Positions 1 through 13,384 of a stretch of DNA of 40,502 nucleotides are shown here, one piece after another. Position numbers and translations under genes: made by a program. The notes under the pieces are model-generated. The model did no database searches. It saw only the letters and a program-made list of their open reading frames with translations, and was not told the origin of the DNA. Numbering within the stretch: position 1 is the first letter of the stretch; each line of letters starts with the position of its first letter. This DNA is from Akkermansia muciniphila. Its GTDB lineage: Bacteria; Verrucomicrobiota; Verrucomicrobiia; Verrucomicrobiales; Akkermansiaceae. The DNA is taken from contig CAMAQB010000024.1 in NCBI GenBank assembly GCA_945860285.1, positions 1-40,502 on the forward strand. Direction: 5' to 3'.

Positions 1-922
1 AACGTCTCGTCACCGCAGTCCTAGTCGAAATCTCCGACGCATGGGAATCAGGAAAATCTTACCTCAAACCACAAAACTAACAAAATACACAAACCACCTA
101 CTTCAACTAAATGCCTTGAAAGATTTTACAGAAAAAATATTGCGCGGCCTTGTTATTTGCTGTGCAAGCCTCGCTTTGCTGGAACCGACCTCGGAATTCC
201 CGTTCGGCATCCTGATTTTCCTTTTCATTCCACGCCGAAACCATGACACTGCCGGTCGTGACTTCCGAGGAATGCAACGTCTGTCATCACCGAGCCATCG
301 CAACCGCATCGCTCATGCATCTGCCGTTGCGCTCCCGCGTTTGGAGGGGCCAGGCGGGCGAGTTCGCAGGGGCTGGAACCGGTCCCAGGGGTCGGTCCTC
401 GCGCGGTAACATGTTAGATTTTTGTTAGAAAATTCTCATCGCTTTTTGCCTCATATCAGTCGATTGGACACCTTGTGCAGTTTCCAGAAAGATTGGCAAC
501 TGGCTTTGTGATGTTGATGCGACCAGGTTGTGGGCGACAGTCTTTGCCCCAGTAATGTGACAAGATTGGAAATGGAAGGATTTCACACTTCCCATCCAGC
601 TGTCGATTCGCCAAACGGAATTCTAGCGATGAGCGAAGTCCCCACATTCTCCGCCGCTTTTCACGCAGAACTGGCATCAATCGCCAAAGTGACTGGAGTC
701 AGCAGTATCAGAGTATATCAAGTTGAATAGCGGCCGTAGTCTCGGACCTCATCAAGAGTAATTTGCAACTTTTTTTACGGCTGAATTTTCGGAGCGGTTA
801 TTGAGGTCAGGGCGCATGGGCTTTTTGACTGCGCTGGTTCTGGACCTTTGCTGGAGTTGGCTGCTGAAAGGGGGTGCTGAGCCGGGGGGGCAGAAATTGA
901 GCCAGGGCTGTCTTGAAGGCAC
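1..922. other. Long stretch without a supportable gene
   Basis: Several short open frames exist on both strands, but none has a recognisable domain, a plausible signal peptide or composition like the neighbouring genes. The first part is more AT-rich than the rest of the window. No tRNA, rRNA or clear hairpin was recognised. It could hold the promoter of a gene to the left, a small RNA or gene remnants; I see nothing specific. Confidence 0.5.
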
Positions 923-950
923 AAAAAAAGCCGCCGTTCGCACGGCAGCT
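923..950 (-). terminator. Rho-independent terminator of the Lys/Cys-rich protein gene
   Basis: Read on the minus strand, a GC-rich hairpin (GCTGCCG, loop around GCGAA, then CGGCGGC) runs directly into seven T. It begins about 25 bases after the stop codon of the gene ending at 974, the usual distance and orientation for an intrinsic terminator of that gene. Confidence 0.8.
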
Positions 951-973
951 TGGGAAATGATCGGGTCGGGAAA

Positions 974-1309
974 TCAAGCGAGGACGGTGCCTTCTTTCTT
1001 CTCTTCGCCGTCTTTTTTGTCGCCGTCCTTGTGTTTGCCGTCTTTGCCGCATTTGCCGCAATGAGCAAGGGTGCCTTCTTCTTTTTCAGCTTCCTTGTCG
1101 CACTCTTTCTTGCATTTGCCAGCGATCAGGGTGCCTTCTTCCTTTTCTTCTTCTTTATCGCACTTCTTCTTGCACTTGCCTTCGGCTACGGTGCTTTCTT
1201 CTTTCTTGGCTTCCGCGCCGTCCGTCTTCTTGCACTTGTCGCAATCAGCTGAGAACGCAAAGCCTGCGAATACGAAGGATGCGATGGTGGTCCACAATAA
1301 TTTTTTCAT
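974..1309 (-). CDS. Small exported lysine- and cysteine-rich repeat protein
   Basis: The product is 111 residues. The start at MKKLLWTT is chosen because it opens a classical Sec signal peptide (basic MKK, hydrophobic WTTIASFVFAGFAFS, likely cleavage before ADCDKC). The mature part is almost entirely Lys, Glu, Cys, Gly and Asp, built from about three 20-residue repeats of the type KEEGTLIAGKCKKECDK, and ends GKCGKDGKHKDGDKK. The paired cysteines (CDKC, CKKKC, CKKEC, CGKC) suggest metal binding or modification; this is inference. EGKC/CGKCG motifs recall bufferin-type Cys-rich peptides, but no DUF692/MNIO modifying enzyme lies nearby. It is a single-gene unit with its own terminator. Function unknown. 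Confidence 0.8.
   Translation of the reverse strand: MKKLLWTTIASFVFAGFAFSADCDKCKKTDGAEAKKEESTVAEGKCKKKCDKEEEKEEGTLIAGKCKKECDKEAEKEEGTLAHCGKCGKDGKHKDGDKKDGEEKKEGTVLA
1069..1248 (-). repeat. Three tandem 60-bp coding repeats
   Basis: Three consecutive units with an exact 60-base period start at 1069, 1129 and 1189; on the plus strand each begins near GGTGCCTTCTTC. They encode the 20-residue Lys/Glu/Cys repeats of the exported protein. The first two are closely similar and the third is diverged, so copy number could vary by slippage or unequal recombination while keeping frame. Confidence 0.8.
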
Positions 1310-6385: not shown

Positions 6386-9300
6386 GTGAACAAATTCCGC
6401 AAAAGCAAAGGCTTTACGCTGATCATCACCATCAGTCTGTTGGTCTTGCTTACGATTGTCGGCATTGGGCTGCTGTCGCTTTCGGCGGTGAGCTTGCGGG
6501 CCTCATCGCAGGGCAGCGCGATGTCGGCGGCCCGCAGCAATGCGCGGATGGCATTGATGCTGGCCCTGGGGGACCTGCAAAAAACGATGGGGCCGGACAA
6601 GGCGATTTCGGCGCCATCCGGGATCGTCAGCGCCACTCCCGCCAAAAACAATCTCACCGGAGTGTGGGCATCGTGGGACATGAACCCCAACGCGGCCAGC
6701 CTCAACTACGCTACTGAAAAAAACACCCGGTTCCGCAAATGGCTGGTCTCCGACAAGGATTTGGCGGCGACATGGGATCGCAATTATCCGACCACGCCGG
6801 CGACTTCCAAGGTCGTCGATCTCGTTGGCAGCGGATCACTGGGGGCGGGAGCTGCGGATACCGAAAAAGTCAAAGCTGGTCTGGTGCCGATCGAGCGCAA
6901 CGGCGTGTTGGAGGGCAATTATGCGTGGCACATCTCCGACGAAGCCGTCAAGGCCCGGATCAATTCCTATCGTGATCCCAGTCAAAACGAAACACTGGCC
7001 AAGAAGCGCGCGTTGATGTCGGGACAGCGGCCGGATGCGTCGGTGGTGACCGCGACCGATGGATCGAAACTTTCTTTTCTTCCCTCCGACCTGACTCCGG
7101 TGGAGTATGGCAGGGCTGCGGAATCATCGGGTAAGTTGATCTCGCTCAATCAGGCCGACGTTCCGAGCCAGACTCCCCGGATAGGCAAATTCCGCAACTC
7201 GGTGACACCCTATTCGTTAGGATTACTCACCAATGTGCGCAGCGGTGGTTTGCAGGAGGACCTTACCTCGTTGTTCGAGGGCACATCCCTGCCGATCAAA
7301 TACAATGCGAAGCGCTTGTATGACACCACGCACAAGATCACCGGGGTTTCGGATCCCCGCTGGACGGCTCTGGCCAGTTATTACAACATTTACAAAGGCA
7401 TCGCGACCCCGGATGCATCACCTACCTATTCCGGCGAGCCACCACAAACCATTTTCACTACGGCTCATGTGGCGTCGACGGGATTTTTCCCCGGCCCGGT
7501 GATTGCCCGTGCGGAGGTTCTTTTCAGCTTCGTGACAAGGGATTCTCACGCCGTATGGACCGGCGGACTGGCAAATTATGATCCTTCGCTGAAACGCATG
7601 GGGCATCTTGTTTATACTCCGGTGGTGACCTTGTACAATCCTTACAACGTCAGTCTGAAATTCGACAAACTGCAGATCGTGATCCGCAACGTGCCGATCG
7701 CATTCAGGTTTTTCGTCAACGGCAAACCGCAGATGAAGGAGCTGGTTTCCATCAATGAGTTGTTCGTCAACGGCAACGAAAAGGGGGAGAAATCATTCGC
7801 GATGGACATTGCCAACTGGACCGGCTACGATGGCGGAGCGACTTCCGGACCTATCGTCATGAAACCCGGCCAGACGCTGGTTTGCAGTCCCGCACTCGAT
7901 CCCTCGCTGACTTTCAGAAATGGACAGGGCAAGTTTTTCGATTTCCAAAACAACCTGACCGGCACCGACGTCAATGGCAATGTGACCGTGGCGATCCCCG
8001 CCAAGCCGGGATTCGCCGGGAAGTCCGTTGGTTATGATATCGACTGGCTCACTCCTTCTGAGTTTGACGATGGAATATCGAACGACAACCGTTTGGGAGT
8101 ACTGGGACTGGCCGACAACGACGATGTTTACATCGAATACGCGGTAAAGGTCCCGACCCGCGGCATCAAGGATCACTTCGAGGTCGGAGCCACGATCACG
8201 GTTGCCGGAAAGTCCAGGGCCTATGGCGGCTTGAATTTCCAATATGCCGACGACGCGACCCTGAAAAAATATTTCACGCAAACCTATCGATACCCGCAGT
8301 CCGGCGCATTCAAGGCCAGCTCGGCCTATCATTCGAACTCCATATCGCTCTCGGCACAGGGCAACGTCAAGTCGTTCGCACTTTTCTCCGCCACCGCGCG
8401 CACAACCAACGGCGGCGTTTATGAAACCAATTCGCGCAGCACCACTGCCGGAGCCATCAACGTGCTGCGCGACGGTCGCTTTGCCGGCAAACCATTCCTG
8501 CACAACAATCCGGCTCGCGCGCTGGCGATGATCGACATGAAAACGGAAACGCCGGGCATGCAGTCGCACGAGTTGAATTTCCTCCAGGTCAACAACAATG
8601 TGGACGACCTGTTTGAGATCGACGCGACAAACCGCGGCAACGTGCTGACCGGCAATACCACCACGCGTGGCATCAAGGCAGGGTCGTTTTTGGAACTACC
8701 GACCGGTCCAATGCTGTCGATCTCGGATTTCAGGCGATCCAATGCATTGACCACATCCTATCTGCCGAGTTTCACACAGCCGGTGTCGAACTCAAGCGTA
8801 TCGCCGCTGATGGATACCAGCAAGGTGCTGCAAACCGGGGTGATATCCTATCCCTTGCTCGACCACAGCGTGCTGGCGAACCACGCGCTCTATGACAAGT
8901 TTTATTTTTCCACCATCGCCCCCTACGGTGGAAAGTCCAGCACTGCGGTCTTCCAGGATTTCATGAATGGGAAGGCGCCGCTGCTGTCGCAGGCATACCA
9001 GCCCTATCTTCCGCAGGGCAAGTCGGTTAATGATGCCCTCGCGGAATTGCTCTCCGGCGGCAAACCAGCCCTGGGTGGATACCTGCTGGCTTCGCAGTAC
9101 CTGATGGTCAGGGGCGCGTTCAATGTGAACTCAACTTCGGTGCAGGCATGGAAGGCGATGCTTGCGTCGATGAAAGGCCTGCAAATTCCCACCCTCTGGC
9201 CGAAAACAGCGGCAGTGGAAATGAAGAGTCTCGTTAACACAAACTCCACCCCGGTCCTGCCGATGTCGCTGGTCAATGGCGGCAATGCCTCGAACGCCAT

Positions 9301-9928
9301 TTTTAATCCCAACATGATCGACAATGCAAAAAGCAACGAGTGGAACGGCTACCGGGAGTTGAACGAAGTGGATTTGGAAAAACTCGCCACCGCCATCGTC
9401 AAACAAGTGCGCGCTCGCGGTCCGTTTCTTTCGATGTCGGAATTTGTCAACCGCCAGATCGGAGCCAATTCGACGCTCACCCGCATGGGCGCGCTGCAGG
9501 CGGCGATCGAGGACGCCGGTCTCAATGCCGCCAGCTTCGCGAGCCAGATTCCTGTTGCGGCAGCCGATGTCGCCGATCAAACGCTTTACAAACACAAAAC
9601 CCCGGAAGCGGCGACCGGCAACCCCGCGGAAGGAGCTCCGGGATGGATCAACCAGGGCGACCTGATGCACGTCATCGAACCCCTCGCCACGGTGCGAGCG
9701 GATACCCTCGTGATCCGCGTTTGCGGCGAGTCGCTTGATCCCTCCGGCCGATTGCTGGCGCGGGCTTTCGCCGAAGCTGTGGTGCAACGGGTTGCCGACT
9801 ATGTCAATCCGGTGGATGCCCCGACCCTGAACGTTTATGATGCCGCCACCGCAAATGCCACGAATAAATCTTTCGGTCGGCGCATCAAGCTGGTATCATT
9901 CCGCTGGCTTTCGCCGCAGGAAGTTTAA
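6386..9928 (+). CDS. Verru_Chthon cassette protein A-like giant prepilin-like protein
   Basis: 1180 residues from a GTG start. The N-terminus is a type IV prepilin/pseudopilin signal: basic leader MNKFRKSKG, then FTLIITISLLVLLTIVGIG, with expected cleavage between G9 and F10. Position 5 of the mature protein is Ile, not the usual Glu, as in tip-type minor pseudopilins such as GspK. The rest is a long exported region rich in Asn, Gly, Ser and Thr; near the C-terminus DLEKLATAIVKQVRARG and MSEFVNRQIG recall the helical part of GspK-like proteins. The pattern fits TIGR02600. It would be inserted in the inner membrane and handled by a prepilin peptidase encoded elsewhere. No cassette B, C or D genes flank it. 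The upstream 257 bases are AT-rich and probably carry the promoter. Confidence 0.85.
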   Translation: MNKFRKSKGFTLIITISLLVLLTIVGIGLLSLSAVSLRASSQGSAMSAARSNARMALMLALGDLQKTMGPDKAISAPSGIVSATPAKNNLTGVWASWDMNPNAASLNYATEKNTRFRKWLVSDKDLAATWDRNYPTTPATSKVVDLVGSGSLGAGAADTEKVKAGLVPIERNGVLEGNYAWHISDEAVKARINSYRDPSQNETLAKKRALMSGQRPDASVVTATDGSKLSFLPSDLTPVEYGRAAESSGKLISLNQADVPSQTPRIGKFRNSVTPYSLGLLTNVRSGGLQEDLTSLFEGTSLPIKYNAKRLYDTTHKITGVSDPRWTALASYYNIYKGIATPDASPTYSGEPPQTIFTTAHVASTGFFPGPVIARAEVLFSFVTRDSHAVWTGGLANYDPSLKRMGHLVYTPVVTLYNPYNVSLKFDKLQIVIRNVPIAFRFFVNGKPQMKELVSINELFVNGNEKGEKSFAMDIANWTGYDGGATSGPIVMKPGQTLVCSPALDPSLTFRNGQGKFFDFQNNLTGTDVNGNVTVAIPAKPGFAGKSVGYDIDWLTPSEFDDGISNDNRLGVLGLADNDDVYIEYAVKVPTRGIKDHFEVGATITVAGKSRAYGGLNFQYADDATLKKYFTQTYRYPQSGAFKASSAYHSNSISLSAQGNVKSFALFSATARTTNGGVYETNSRSTTAGAINVLRDGRFAGKPFLHNNPARALAMIDMKTETPGMQSHELNFLQVNNNVDDLFEIDATNRGNVLTGNTTTRGIKAGSFLELPTGPMLSISDFRRSNALTTSYLPSFTQPVSNSSVSPLMDTSKVLQTGVISYPLLDHSVLANHALYDKFYFSTIAPYGGKSSTAVFQDFMNGKAPLLSQAYQPYLPQGKSVNDALAELLSGGKPALGGYLLASQYLMVRGAFNVNSTSVQAWKAMLASMKGLQIPTLWPKTAAVEMKSLVNTNSTPVLPMSLVNGGNASNAIFNPNMIDNAKSNEWNGYRELNEVDLEKLATAIVKQVRARGPFLSMSEFVNRQIGANSTLTRMGALQAAIEDAGLNAASFASQIPVAAADVADQTLYKHKTPEAATGNPAEGAPGWINQGDLMHVIEPLATVRADTLVIRVCGESLDPSGRLLARAFAEAVVQRVADYVNPVDAPTLNVYDAATANATNKSFGRRIKLVSFRWLSPQEV

Positions 9929-9935
9929 CAAAACC

Positions 9936-10649
9936 ATGAATCCATTCCGCATCGCCCTTGCTCTGTCACTGATGAACTTGTCGCAGCTCTCCGCCCAAGA
10001 GGCTGACAGTGCGATCCTCATCCGCTCGGTCTATCACAATCCCATCAGCCCGGTGGCGGATCTCTATGTCGCCGACAAGTCGGGTGCCATGGTGAAATTG
10101 AATCTTGTGGTGGAAGGTCTGGGCGCGCCGCAGGTGGCGCGCACGACCAATGGCACGCTGATGTTGTTTACCCAGCCGAATGTGGATCCGAAAAACCCCT
10201 CGGCTTCGCTCGCCGCCACCAGCAAGGTTCCCGAGCAGATCAAACAGGCGGATTTGTTGATTTTTCCCGCCCCGGAAAATGCCAAACCGCCCTACCGAGT
10301 TGTGCTGATCGATGATGCCCCGAACGTCTTCCGGAAAGGACAGTCGCGGGTGATCAACCTCACCGCCGTCGAGATCGCCTTGCAGGCCGGCGAACACAAA
10401 TTACCGCTGCCCTCGGGAAAAATCACCGAGGTTCCCGCCGTGACCAAGGTCAACGAATACAACATGGCGCAAACCAATTTTTACTACAAGCAGGCCGATG
10501 AATGGGTGGCGTTCACCGAACGACAATTGCAGTATCTCGACACCACACGGCGGATTTTCCTCGTCCACCTCACACCGGGTTCGACCGAACCGGTCGTTAG
10601 AACCATCGTCGACACCACCCCGGAAGTCCCCGTCAACAAGGGCAAGTGA
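9936..10649 (+). CDS. Small exported protein linked to the prepilin-like gene
   Basis: 237 residues from MNPFRIALALSLMNL, chosen because it starts a Sec signal peptide (likely cleavage after LSQLSA, before QEADS) and lies 7 bases after the stop of the prepilin-like gene. An upstream in-frame start would overlap that gene by about 90 bases and is unlikely. The mature part contains ISPVADLYVADKSG, a VNLVVEGLG-like strand pattern and a Gln-rich YNMAQTNFYYKQADEW stretch, mostly beta by eye. I do not recognise a domain. The tight spacing indicates cotranscription and a role in the same surface process (inference). Confidence 0.8.
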   Translation: MNPFRIALALSLMNLSQLSAQEADSAILIRSVYHNPISPVADLYVADKSGAMVKLNLVVEGLGAPQVARTTNGTLMLFTQPNVDPKNPSASLAATSKVPEQIKQADLLIFPAPENAKPPYRVVLIDDAPNVFRKGQSRVINLTAVEIALQAGEHKLPLPSGKITEVPAVTKVNEYNMAQTNFYYKQADEWVAFTERQLQYLDTTRRIFLVHLTPGSTEPVVRTIVDTTPEVPVNKGK

Positions 10650-10903
10650 GCGGAGCGCGCTTGAATGTCCAATGGTGCGGATTCACTCAATCTTGAGGGA
10701 AAGCACCCGAACGCCATTCCTAAGCACAATGCAGGGATTGAATGCATTGCTGAAGTGTGGAGAGAGGAAAATAGAGCAGGAATGTGAAGGATGTGGTGAC
10801 CATGATAAGCCAGTGTCGGCAGGCCATTTTTCGCATCACAGGGCCGGGAAAACATTTTTCGCGACAAAGCCGGGATAGCGGCGTTATTATAGTAACGAAG
10901 AAG

Positions 10904-12505
10904 ATGCGTAACGAGCGGATGGTATTGTGGTTGCTGGTGGTTCTGATCGTGGCCTTGGGCTGCGGGTGGTTCATAGGGCGATCCACGTGGACCGGTCCGG
11001 TGAAAAGCAAGCCCGTGGTGGCGGAATTTGACGAATCCACGGCAAATGCACCGCTGTGGGGCAAGCCCGGGACGTCGAATGAACGAAAGGCATCTTTTCG
11101 TCTGGACGACGGCGCATTGCAGACCGGGGCGCTGTCGGGCCAACGCACTCTGCGGTTCAACTCGCTCGAAGACCTCGAGGCATTTCTCAAACGGGCGGGG
11201 GACCGCATCCGGGTCATGGGCCGCCTGGACAGTCTCAAGGCCCTGCGTGTCTCGTTTCTCGATCCCGCTGATTTCAATTCATTGCTCGACGGCACCGAGG
11301 AACAGGGCTTCATTTATCCCGTCTACACCCCCAATCCAAGTGGCGGTGTGGTGCAGGACAATGTCGTGCCGCTTGGCAACAATTTGTTGGCCTGGCTGGG
11401 ACTGAAGTTGGCGGACCTGACTCTGGGAAGCGGGGTGAAAATTGCGTTGCTCGACACCGGGGTCGTGCCGCATCCCGCATTCAGCTCTGCGATCGAAAAC
11501 GTGATGATCGTCCCTGGCGCACAGAATTTCGAAGACTGGAACGGCCACGGCACTGCAACGGCTTCTTTGATTCTCGGGAATTCGCTGAGCATTCCCGGCG
11601 CGGCACCCGGGGCGCAGTTGACTTCGTATCGAATCGCCGACGACAACGGCACGTCCGACAGTTGGCTGATGGCGCAGGCAATCGTGCAGGCCGCCGATGC
11701 TGGTGCGCAAATCATTTCGATCTCGATGGGTTCCTATGGCGACAGTTCGCTGTTGCGCGATGCGGTGTTTTACGCCCAACAAAAAAAAGCCGTGGTGGTG
11801 GCTTCCAGTGGCAATGATGGATATACGCAGTCCGCATATCCGGCGGGATATCCCGGAGTGATTTCGGCGGTGGCGGTGGATGCCGAAAACAACCACCTGC
11901 TGTTTTCCAATCAGGCGAGCAACACCGCGTTGTCGGCTCCCGGCTGGGGAGTGAACGCGGCTTATCCCGGCGATGCCATCGTTTCATTCAATGGCACCAG
12001 TGCCTCCGCGCCGATCATTGCGGGGTCGATCGCGGCAGTGATGTCCTCTAACAATCTCAGCGCATCGCAGGCCGTGGCGATGATCTATCAATACACCAAC
12101 GAAACCGGTGCCGCCGGTGCCGATCCGCTCACGGGGGCTGGAGCGGTGAATCTCGGTCGCATTCTGCAAAGCGACAGCGGCAACATCCAGGATGCCGCGG
12201 TGGCTTCGCATTTCATCACACCGCCCGCCGAGGGCAGTTCCGCTTCCGTGCAGGTGAACATTCAAAACCAGGGCACCACCTCGTTGTTGAACATTCCGGT
12301 GACAGTGACCACGCCATCGGGTGTTACCGAACTAACAGTTGCTTCGCTGGCGCCAGGCGCGGTGAAAAGCTTCAACCTGTCGCTACCGAACAGCGCCTTT
12401 AAAAACGGTGCCGCAGTCACCGTGTCATCGCACATTACCGGTGCCGACGCGGTGCTGTACAACAACCAGCGCAGCACCACCTACAGTCCGCCACCAGCTC
12501 CTTGA
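10904..12505 (+). CDS. Membrane-anchored subtilisin-like serine protease (S8 family)
   Basis: 533 residues from MRNERMVLWLL. One N-terminal membrane segment (about 6-25) anchors a large periplasmic or surface part. The peptidase domain has the S8 triad: D184 in KIALLDTGV, H215 in WNGHGTATASLILG and S366 in FNGTSASAPIIAG, plus the oxyanion-hole N304 in ASSGNDG. About 100 residues before it could act as a propeptide. The C-terminal 110 residues (VQVNIQNQGTTSLLNIPVTV...) look like a CARDB-type beta-sandwich. It follows the exported protein on the same strand after 254 bases, so it may have its own promoter. All residues needed for activity are present. Confidence 0.93.
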   Translation: MRNERMVLWLLVVLIVALGCGWFIGRSTWTGPVKSKPVVAEFDESTANAPLWGKPGTSNERKASFRLDDGALQTGALSGQRTLRFNSLEDLEAFLKRAGDRIRVMGRLDSLKALRVSFLDPADFNSLLDGTEEQGFIYPVYTPNPSGGVVQDNVVPLGNNLLAWLGLKLADLTLGSGVKIALLDTGVVPHPAFSSAIENVMIVPGAQNFEDWNGHGTATASLILGNSLSIPGAAPGAQLTSYRIADDNGTSDSWLMAQAIVQAADAGAQIISISMGSYGDSSLLRDAVFYAQQKKAVVVASSGNDGYTQSAYPAGYPGVISAVAVDAENNHLLFSNQASNTALSAPGWGVNAAYPGDAIVSFNGTSASAPIIAGSIAAVMSSNNLSASQAVAMIYQYTNETGAAGADPLTGAGAVNLGRILQSDSGNIQDAAVASHFITPPAEGSSASVQVNIQNQGTTSLLNIPVTVTTPSGVTELTVASLAPGAVKSFNLSLPNSAFKNGAAVTVSSHITGADAVLYNNQRSTTYSPPPAP

Positions 12506-12523: not shown

Positions 12524-13249
12524 TTACTTGGCTTCCCGACCGGCTAGCGGACCCCAGATTTCCTCCATCAGCTTGAAAATATCCGGTTCGTCACGCTTCA
12601 GTTCTCCGGTCACGAAAGGGTAGAAGTCGTTCGATCCGAAATAACTCTCGGTCATTTCTGCAAAGAACTCCATTTGATTGGTGAGGCCGTAATGCTCGCG
12701 CATGTTACCCGGGCTGGTCATCACTGATTTATACTTCCCGCTGTCGCAGAATTTTTTCCATGCGGCGATCACCTTGGGGTTGTCGAAACCCAGCACCTGG
12801 TCGTGGTAAGCGTGGGCCAGTTCATGGAGAATGACCCAGGGCATGCGGTGGATGTCGAAGGACGATAGGAAATCCGCGGTCGAAGGGATGTGCACGCAGC
12901 GGGCCACGTTTTCTGCATAGCCATTATCCTTAAGCCAGCCGGCGGCGGGATGATATTGCATCGACTTTAGGTCTGCGTAGTCGTAATCGAGTTCGATGGT
13001 TACCGCGCGCAGCTTGGCGAGCGGTTTTTCGGACACAACAAAGGTGATAGCGACCAGACGCGAAGTCAGCAGCTTCAGTGCTTTTTCGCCTTCGGCAGCA
13101 TGAGCGCCTCCGGGAAGAAGTCGATTGTCGATGCGGATATTCCAGCCCTCGATGTCGCGCGATGTAAATTGCTTGGGCAGTCCTTCTTTTTCAGCGGCGA
13201 AAATCACGGGACTAAACAAGGCGAGCAGGGAAATGATGATTTTTTTCAT
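12524..13249 (-). CDS. Exported HExxH zinc metallopeptidase-like protein
   Basis: 241 residues from MKKIIISLLAL; the Sec signal peptide probably ends after VIFA. The central motif WVILHELAHAYHDQVLG carries the zincin HExxH (H142, E143, H146). Downstream, NQMEFFAEMTESYFGSNDFYPF supplies glutamates, one of which could be the third zinc ligand, as in gluzincins where a Glu about 50 residues on completes the site. Close relatives are, to my knowledge, annotated only as hypothetical proteins. It is convergent with the S8 protease gene, only 18 bases apart, and its stop codon faces that gene's stop. Hydrolysis is predicted from the motif; the substrate is unknown. Confidence 0.82.
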   Translation of the reverse strand: MKKIIISLLALFSPVIFAAEKEGLPKQFTSRDIEGWNIRIDNRLLPGGAHAAEGEKALKLLTSRLVAITFVVSEKPLAKLRAVTIELDYDYADLKSMQYHPAAGWLKDNGYAENVARCVHIPSTADFLSSFDIHRMPWVILHELAHAYHDQVLGFDNPKVIAAWKKFCDSGKYKSVMTSPGNMREHYGLTNQMEFFAEMTESYFGSNDFYPFVTGELKRDEPDIFKLMEEIWGPLAGREAK

Positions 13250-13384
13250 AATGCGGCGGATTGGTTGATGAATCATTGACGCGCCGAAATTCGCACAGAC
13301 CCGGTGGCCTGCAAAGGACTTTCTCTGACAGGTGAGGAAAACTCACGCACCTTGTTTGGTGGGGCCTGGTTTGATTCGCAATGA

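What the first reader, a model, noticed from the sequence alone, without database searches (positions are those of the whole stretch)
6386..12505. Solitary giant prepilin-like protein with an exported partner and a membrane-anchored protease
The 1180-residue protein keeps a prepilin leader but has Ile in place of Glu5, as in tip pseudopilins (GspK), and fits the Verru_Chthon cassette A family normally found with cassettes B-D. Here it stands alone, 7 bases before a small exported protein and close to an S8 protease. The trio could be a surface structure plus its processing enzyme. That is inference; the pieces have not been described together as far as I know.
Basis: partly seen in the sequence, partly recalled or inferred. 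Interest (0 to 1): 0.55.

Follow-up and report, generated by a model that had tools for sequence, protein, structure and literature searches.

The report
Giant pseudopilin tip with exported partner
A bacterium related to Akkermansia carries several copies of a two-gene unit, a giant protein built like the tip of a protein-secretion filament plus a small exported partner; the pair recurs in at least three families of its class, while the protease next to this copy is only a part-time neighbour.

Summary
The three open frames are real. The giant protein (6386-9928, 1180 aa) is not a Verru_Chthon_A member: 22.5 bits against a cut-off of 332.3, leader region only. Its model (pLDDT 91.6) has one clear solved match, the type II secretion tip pseudopilin GspK (Z 10.5, 244 of 280 residues, next row 5.1), though Foldseek alone found nothing significant. 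It is not solitary: its genome holds seven. In 96 of 109 distinct giant-gene loci with room downstream an exported-looking protein of about 240 aa follows at once, as in 10 of 10 chosen loci of two other families. Distances within giant and partner correlate at r = 0.95, as expected if they duplicated as a unit. The partner is a tandem beta-sandwich without a named family. The S8 protease is facultative: next in 13 of 102 loci. Best reading: a multi-copy, possibly interchangeable, giant GspK-type tip with a dedicated exported partner. Assembly, display and ligand are inferred. No description was found.

The parts
6386..9928 (+). A: giant GspK-type pseudopilin, 1180 aa, GTG start
   Evidence: ORF; model pLDDT 91.6, pTM 0.90; GspK 3ci0_K Z 10.5 over 244 of 280 residues, model 38..1180; profile family in 15 of 19 genomes searched, own included
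6386..6412 (+). prepilin leader MNKFRKSKG, predicted cleavage after Gly9; residue +5 (6425-6427) is Ile
   Evidence: sequence; such a leader found by pattern in 98 of 99 complete relatives, none with Glu at +5
6983..8665 (+). least conserved middle of A (about residues 200-760), likely the insert in the GspK fold; bounds approximate
   Evidence: mean top-residue frequency per 40 residues 0.31-0.54 here, against 0.62-0.68 in residues 1-80 and 0.56-0.68 in residues 1001-1040 and 1081-1180 (1041-1080: 0.40); weak Ig-like match to the lamin tail at 366-632, Z 5.1
9872..9925 (+). conserved C-terminal motif FGRR...SFRWLxxxE[VI]-stop, last strand of the model
   Evidence: 105 of 113 distinct A proteins match [FLM]R[WY][LMVI]xxx[DE][IVT] at the very end; strand 1165-1175 in the model
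9936..10649 (+). P: exported-looking partner, 237 aa, tandem beta-sandwich
   Evidence: ORF; homologue directly behind A in 96 of 109 loci; model pLDDT 94.8; PepT2 extracellular domain Z 12.4. Signal peptide judged by eye, no predictor run
10904..12505 (+). S8 subtilase with N-terminal hydrophobic segment; facultative neighbour (upstream GTG at 10784 also open)
   Evidence: PF00082 E 3.8e-36; CARDB tail just below its cut-off, 22.6 against 22.7; catalytic residues invariant in 12 aligned; follows the pair in 13 of 102 loci

Best explanation
The giant protein is a GspK-type tip pseudopilin. It should be cut by the genome's prepilin peptidase, keep its greasy N-terminal helix in the membrane, and, lacking Glu5, cap a type II secretion or type IV pilus-like filament. 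A large variable insert in the GspK fold would face outward and bind a ligand, either an exoprotein to be pushed out or a surface such as a polysaccharide. The small exported protein encoded right behind it is its dedicated partner, probably a periplasmic or tip-bound subunit that binds the insert. Several such pairs per genome probably act as alternative tips on shared machinery. Shown by computation: ORFs, leader pattern, fold, adjacency, co-inheritance of the pair, presence of machinery genes. Inferred: export of the partner, processing, incorporation at a tip, binding between the two, exchange of tips, nature of the ligand. The S8 protease is an optional helper, not a core part.
For: The only solved match of the model above Z 5.1 is GspK of the GspK-GspI-GspJ tip complex, Z 10.5. 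No Glu5 in 98 of 98 readable leaders. Conserved ends and variable middle. Partner directly behind in 96 of 109 loci and in 10 of 10 chosen loci of two other families; A and P distances r = 0.953, highest of 1000 permutations 0.166. Own genome has three strong T2SSE matches, a prepilin peptidase match just over its cut-off, three secretins and a four-gene pseudopilin cassette on C77. Tips made by paralogous minor pilin sets are reported in Myxococcus (PMC12075869, outline with abstract, and passages).
Against: No sequence-level match of A to GspK: no Pfam match for the 7 own members at E up to 1, no relevant PDB sequence. Foldseek alone gives nothing at E under 0.001; the GspK match rests on one aligner's second look at Foldseek's candidates. 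No pseudopilin genes were found beside the stand-alone As. Nearest neighbours agree between A and P in only 40 of 88 pairs, and for the C103 pair the partner of the closest A ranks 19 of 83. The pair is missing in the three loci examined of genus g3 (L176, L193, L195), so A can exist without P. No data on expression, binding or location.
Confidence: 0.6

Rival explanations
1. A is a membrane-tethered periplasmic or surface receptor: the prepilin-like helix is only an anchor, the GspK core no longer assembles, and P is its ligand-binding co-receptor, for example for polysaccharide uptake.
For: No pseudopilin genes found beside the stand-alone As; very large insert; seven copies; aquatic Akkermansiaceae are reported as particle-associated glycan users (PMC13174399, passages).
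Against: The ends that form the GspK core are the conserved part, and the GspK fold including the pilin sheet is kept.
Confidence: 0.22
2. A-P-S8 is an obligate trio: a surface structure and its processing enzyme.
For: Same order A-P-S8 in 13 of 102 A loci, in several branches of the A tree, and in 18 of 50 S8 loci; gaps from partner to S8 of -67 to 192 bases as called.
Against: 89 of 102 A loci with room have no S8 next; the best S8 match lies away from A-P in 5 of 10 genus genomes; the S8 label needs at least 6 changes on the A tree, and the fewest possible, 9, is not far below the shuffled mean of 10.6; S8 is followed by a C39-like protein in 30 of 50 loci.
Confidence: 0.1
3. A is a member of Verru_Chthon cassette protein A (TIGR02600) that lost its cassette.
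For: Shared leader region: 22.5 bits, E 2.4e-5; profile match over 60 leader columns; weak A-profile hits in 2 of 7 TIGR02600 loci, E 1.9e-4 and 3.9e-5.
Against: Far below cut-off; no match beyond the leader; different C-terminus in 7 of 7 and no partner in 7 of 7 true TIGR02600 loci.
Confidence: 0.03

Closest known systems
GspK / XcpX, tip minor pseudopilin of type II secretion
   Same: Prepilin-type leader without Glu5 (GspK's own lack of Glu5 is recalled), long N-terminal helix, pilin sheet and helical domain; structural match Z 10.5. XcpX is placed on top of the tip complex (PMC6211770, passages including the abstract).
   Different: 1180 aa against 280 residues in the GspK chain, with a big variable insert; no pseudopilin genes found beside it but an exported partner; seven copies in one genome; no sequence-level match.
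Verru_Chthon cassette protein A (TIGR02600)
   Same: Giant size, verrucomicrobial, prepilin-like leader
   Different: Below cut-off; no homology found beyond the leader; in 7 of 7 loci examined TIGR02600 genes have Glu5-type pseudopilin neighbours and a different tail, and no partner.
Kil Tip complexes of Myxococcus xanthus (KilLMN)
   Same: Paralogous minor-pilin sets with variable outer domains, reported as interchangeable tips of one pilus (PMC12075869, outline with abstract, and passages)
   Different: Tad pilus, three pilin-fold proteins per tip; here a single giant GspK-like protein plus a non-pilin partner. Homology not tested.
pulG-like pseudopilin expansion in Verruconatronum alginivorum
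   Same: Many pseudopilin paralogues in one verrucomicrobial genome, 67 reported; a pseudopilin over-expressed on alginate (PMC13274419, passages)
   Different: pulG-like pseudopilins; giant GspK-like proteins with a partner are not mentioned in the three passages I saw.

Membership tests
GspK-type minor pseudopilin | prepilin leader with small residue before the cut and hydrophobic helix | tested here: met
   pattern found in 98 of 99; helix 10-68 in the model
GspK-type minor pseudopilin | no Glu at +5 (recalled as a GspK trait) | tested here: met
   0 of 98 readable leaders have Glu at +5
GspK-type minor pseudopilin | GspK fold: pilin sheet plus helical domain | tested here: met
   3ci0_K Z 10.5, rmsd 3.6, 244 of 280 residues; next row Z 5.1. 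Foldseek alone not significant
GspK-type minor pseudopilin | sequence membership in a T2SSK family | tested here: not met
   no Pfam match for any of the 7 own-genome members at E up to 1
GspK-type minor pseudopilin | encoded with other minor pseudopilins (GspH/I/J) | tested here: not met
   no Glu5-type pseudopilin leader found by pattern in the window or in the stretches around the six other giants; a separate four-gene cassette lies on C77
GspK-type minor pseudopilin | binds GspI/GspJ at the filament tip | not testable with these tools
   no complex prediction or biochemistry available
TIGR02600 Verru_Chthon cassette protein A | score over the curated cut-off of 332.3 bits | tested here: not met
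   22.5 bits; 5 of 7 own members match at E up to 0.1, best E 2.4e-5
TIGR02600 Verru_Chthon cassette protein A | homology along the whole length | tested here: not met
   profile comparison covers 60 leader columns only
TIGR02600 Verru_Chthon cassette protein A | pseudopilin-like cassette genes adjacent (as for cassettes B-D) | tested here: not met
   found by pattern in 7 of 7 TIGR02600 loci, in 0 of 7 stretches around the own giants. Models of B-D themselves were not searched
Peptidase S8 (PF00082) | score over gathering cut-off and Asp/His/Ser triad | tested here: met
   125.3 bits against 21.8; triad invariant in 12 aligned
Mul1B family (NF052542) | score over the cut-off of 75 bits | tested here: not met
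   1 of 73 partners at E 0.057, the window partner not among the matches; the own genome's Mul1B match is on C10

The most novel reading that the evidence does not exclude
Verrucomicrobial bacteria of at least three families run a secretion or pilus machine with a set of interchangeable giant GspK tips, each carrying its own outward insert and its own exported beta-sandwich partner, so that a single kind of filament serves many different substrates or surfaces.
Probability: 0.4. Interest if true: 0.75.

Novelty: new variant of a known kind. Interest (0 to 1): 0.58.

Why it matters
How type II secretion recognises its substrates is a long-standing open question (recalled). A genome with seven alternative giant tips, most with a private partner, offers a natural experiment: delete one tip and see which exoprotein or surface contact is lost. 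It also points to a protein family and a partner family for which Pfam and NCBIfam gave no model over cut-off.

Tried and rejected
Mul1B link: one of 73 partners hit NF052542 at E 0.057. I searched that family in 15 genomes and looked at four of its copies: they lie beside a gene of 1037-1116 aa, the A and P profiles found nothing in those four stretches, and the four align with each other as another protein, which I read as helical by eye. Rejected; no direct profile comparison with the partner was run.

Obligate S8 trio: the first count (13 loci) looked strong, but the family-wide search (107 of 145 genomes at E up to 1e-30) and 50 loci showed a near single-copy gene that often sits elsewhere. 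The 50 are the 30 best matches plus 20 that I picked from lower ranks, so 18 of 50 is not a random estimate. For G005 and G008 only the better of two matches was examined.

Substrate neighbours: the largest neighbour cluster (31 proteins at 22 of 102 locus ids, 29 of 31 on A's strand) contains large secreted repeat proteins, 5 of 10 scanned with PATR/TIGR02601. PATR repeats are common in these genomes (74 matches in the own one) and the single-linkage cluster is mixed, so I do not claim enrichment.

Terminator or promoter between P and S8: no terminator-like site there, one promoter-like site at 10861-10890; 6 promoter-like sites in the region against 3.8 (sd 2.1) in shuffles; RNA fold of the gap z -1.22. 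Undecided.

Defence and phage families: no PADLOC match; PHROGs gave the S8 domain and a weak leader hit, E 0.0049.

Rows dropped or odd: 10 of 123 A-profile hits were not kept (repeat of the last 200 residues, or no C-terminus). Four of 113 had under 700 bases downstream and are outside the partner count. The partner profile was grown on ORFs within 300 bases behind A, with starts no earlier than -60, so the lower end of the offsets is cut. Against all 8178 ORFs of the loci it gave 105 hits; by recount 96 are the counted partners, 3 are repeats of counted loci, and 6, at L061 (two), L096, L101, L123 and L127, are further copies not directly behind the A listed there. The 13 loci without partner are; in L053 and L123 another A follows. 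Split As in L068, L080 and L123 were counted by their C-terminal piece only. On the A tree 11 of 103 rows carry the S8 label; rows with too little downstream counted as without it. The 10 loci of two other families were picked from the best leader hits, not at random; one of them (L166) was left out of alignment A8.
Full report
What is there. The window is contig C24 of a 3.7 Mb genome in 162 contigs. The 78 named loci that encode near relatives of the giant protein bear titles such as Akkermansiaceae or Verrucomicrobia MAG, Haloferula, Roseibacillus and Luteolibacter. The giant ORF runs from a GTG at 6386 to 9928, the partner from 9936 to 10649, and the S8 frame to 12505. The S8 start that relatives support is 10904. 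Upstream, on the other strand, is a bioF-like gene, just under the bioF cut-off; downstream, convergent, is a protein with sub-threshold M90 similarity.

Not a cassette A member. TIGR02600 scores 22.5 bits against 332.3, over residues 9-123. Of 57 genomes drawn from the class, 2 have a match over the cut-off. I fetched 7 such loci: by pattern 7 of 7 have Glu5-type pseudopilin genes next to them, and 7 of 7 end in FxP-type tails, not in the FRWL motif; none has a partner hit at E up to 10, and 2 of 7 give a weak hit to the A profile. Profile comparison with six of them finds only the 60-residue leader in common.

A family of its own. The own genome has seven giants and, apart from them, a four-gene cassette on C77: three small proteins with N-methylation-type leaders (two of three over the Pfam cut-off) and a K-like protein with a T2SSK hit below cut-off (17.4 against 24.2). 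Fifteen of 19 genomes searched, own included, have the family. By my hand count of the listed rows the other genus genomes have about 6 to 12 copies; that list is cut. From 123 profile hits I kept 113 distinct proteins with a C-terminus, on 102 locus ids. The +5 residue could be read in 98 of 99 complete ones: Ile 40, Val 35, Ala 8, Leu 6, Met 6, Thr 2, Ser 1, never Glu. The last residues match [FLM]R[WY][LMVI]xxx[DE][IVT] in 105 of 113; two of the eight misses are contig ends. In two other families of the class, 9 giants from G059, G050 and G068 align with this profile over 1036 columns (probability 100).

Fold. The AlphaFold2 model from 64 window and named-locus sequences has mean pLDDT 91.6 and pTM 0.90. 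Foldseek found no solved match at E under 0.001. VIA-align 2, which only re-aligns chains that Foldseek ranks, put GspK of enterotoxigenic E. coli (3ci0_K) first with Z 10.5, rmsd 3.6, 244 of 280 residues aligned between model residues 38 and 1180; the next row has Z 5.1, a lamin Ig fold on residues 366-632. So the ends of A form a GspK, and a large insert sits between. Conservation agrees: residues 1-80, 1001-1040 and 1081-1180 are the most conserved, about 200-760 the least. The C77 K-like protein shares 45 columns near the C-terminus (E 1.3e-4, probability 54).

The partner. Starting from the window partner alone, an iterated profile found a homologue directly behind A in 96 of 109 loci with at least 700 bases downstream, with starts as called from -56 to +150 bases and lengths as called of 215-296 aa, median 239. 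In the own genome 5 of 7 have it (C24, C40, C6, C103, C21); C51 is followed by two sulfatase-like genes (by eye) and C36 reaches its contig end. In ten loci picked from two other families, 10 of 10 show it behind A at E 5.8e-9 or better in a six-frame search. Pairwise distances of 88 A-P pairs correlate at 0.953; the highest of 1000 permutations is 0.166; the nearest neighbour is the same in 40 of 88. This speaks for inheritance as a unit; it does not by itself prove contact. No Pfam or NCBIfam family fits. The model (pLDDT 94.8) is two beta-sandwiches; the best solved matches are the PepT2 extracellular domain (Z 12.4, 176 residues) and, for the C-terminal half, HGSNAT (up to 9.8), AlgF (9.2), a domain of cytolysins (up to 8.7) and transthyretin (6.5). 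A shared fold shows no function.

The protease. S8 relatives directly follow A-P in 13 of 102 loci with at least 1500 bases downstream, in several branches of the A tree. Of 145 genomes of the family, 107 have this S8 type at E up to 1e-30, mostly once. Of 50 S8 loci examined, window's own included, 18 have the partner directly upstream and 30 a C39-like exported-looking protein directly downstream, 13 both; the name C39-like is mine, from a conserved N.CGPA stretch, and Pfam had no match for the one tested. Within the genus, taking the best match, it is linked in the own genome, G001, G002, G003 and G007, and not in G004, G005, G006, G008 and G009. On the A tree the label (11 of 103 rows) needs at least 9 changes, 6 forced by well-supported branches; shuffled labels average 10.6 and 17 of 500 are as low. 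The adjacency recurs too often for a genome of thousands of genes to give it by chance (inference), but the protease is not a fixed member.

Machinery. The own genome has three strong T2SSE matches plus five weaker, shorter ones that I take to be PilT-like, a prepilin peptidase match just over cut-off and three secretins. I did not work out which filament they form.

Mechanism. Shown: reading frames, leader pattern, GspK-like fold, adjacency, co-inheritance, machinery genes. Inferred: export of P, cleavage, tip position, outward insert, binding of P, exchange of tips on shared machinery, optional role of S8. A precedent for alternative tips from paralogous minor pilins is the Kil system (PMC12075869, outline with abstract, and passages); in type II secretion, XcpX (GspK) tops the tip complex (PMC6211770, passages including the abstract). 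Expansion of pulG-like pseudopilins in a verrucomicrobial genome is in print (PMC13274419, passages), and pilins and pseudopilins are reported enriched in two Verrucomicrobiae populations (PMC12487129, passages).

Novelty. Searches for 'Verru_Chthon' gave 0 papers, as did a four-term search. Other searches combining Verrucomicrobia with pseudopilin, prepilin, minor pilin or secretion terms gave lists, cut for all but, in which nothing, by title, abstract start or the passages read of three papers, describes giant GspK-like proteins with an exported partner. The library holds open-licence papers only. I call it a new variant of a known kind.

Noticed in passing
30 of the 50 S8 loci L196-L245 (listed): The S8 protease gene is followed by an exported-looking protein with a conserved N.CGPA stretch that I call C39-like; Pfam had no match for the one tested. 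In L211 and L212 an A gene follows this pair. The window has none after its S8.
   Followed up: partly
window 12524-13276 (-): HExxH metallopeptidase-like protein convergent with S8; only sub-threshold Pfam matches; in the fetched loci one close homologue (L100) and one weak (L054).
   Followed up: partly
The 8 g3 genomes listed have no S8 of this type.
   Followed up: partly
L029 6858-12701 (own genome C77): Four-gene pseudopilin cassette followed by an exported-looking protein that weakly resembles the partner (31 columns, E 7e-4, probability 26). L174 shows a similar layout.
   Followed up: partly
22 of 102 A locus ids, e.g. L072, L100, L109: Large secreted-looking proteins, several with PATR repeats, lie beside A, 29 of 31 on the same strand; several end in a similar F[AG]RLxV tail. 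Possible substrates; enrichment not established.
   Followed up: partly
L105, L119, L053: Tandem modules: A-P-S8 followed by a second A (L105, L119), and A directly followed by A-P (L053).
   Followed up: no
L107: A verrucomicrobial A-P locus in a MAG labelled Thioalkalivibrio; probably a binning error.
   Followed up: no
own genome C51 (L023): A secretin gene lies about 7 kb from the C51 giant paralogue on the same strand.
   Followed up: no
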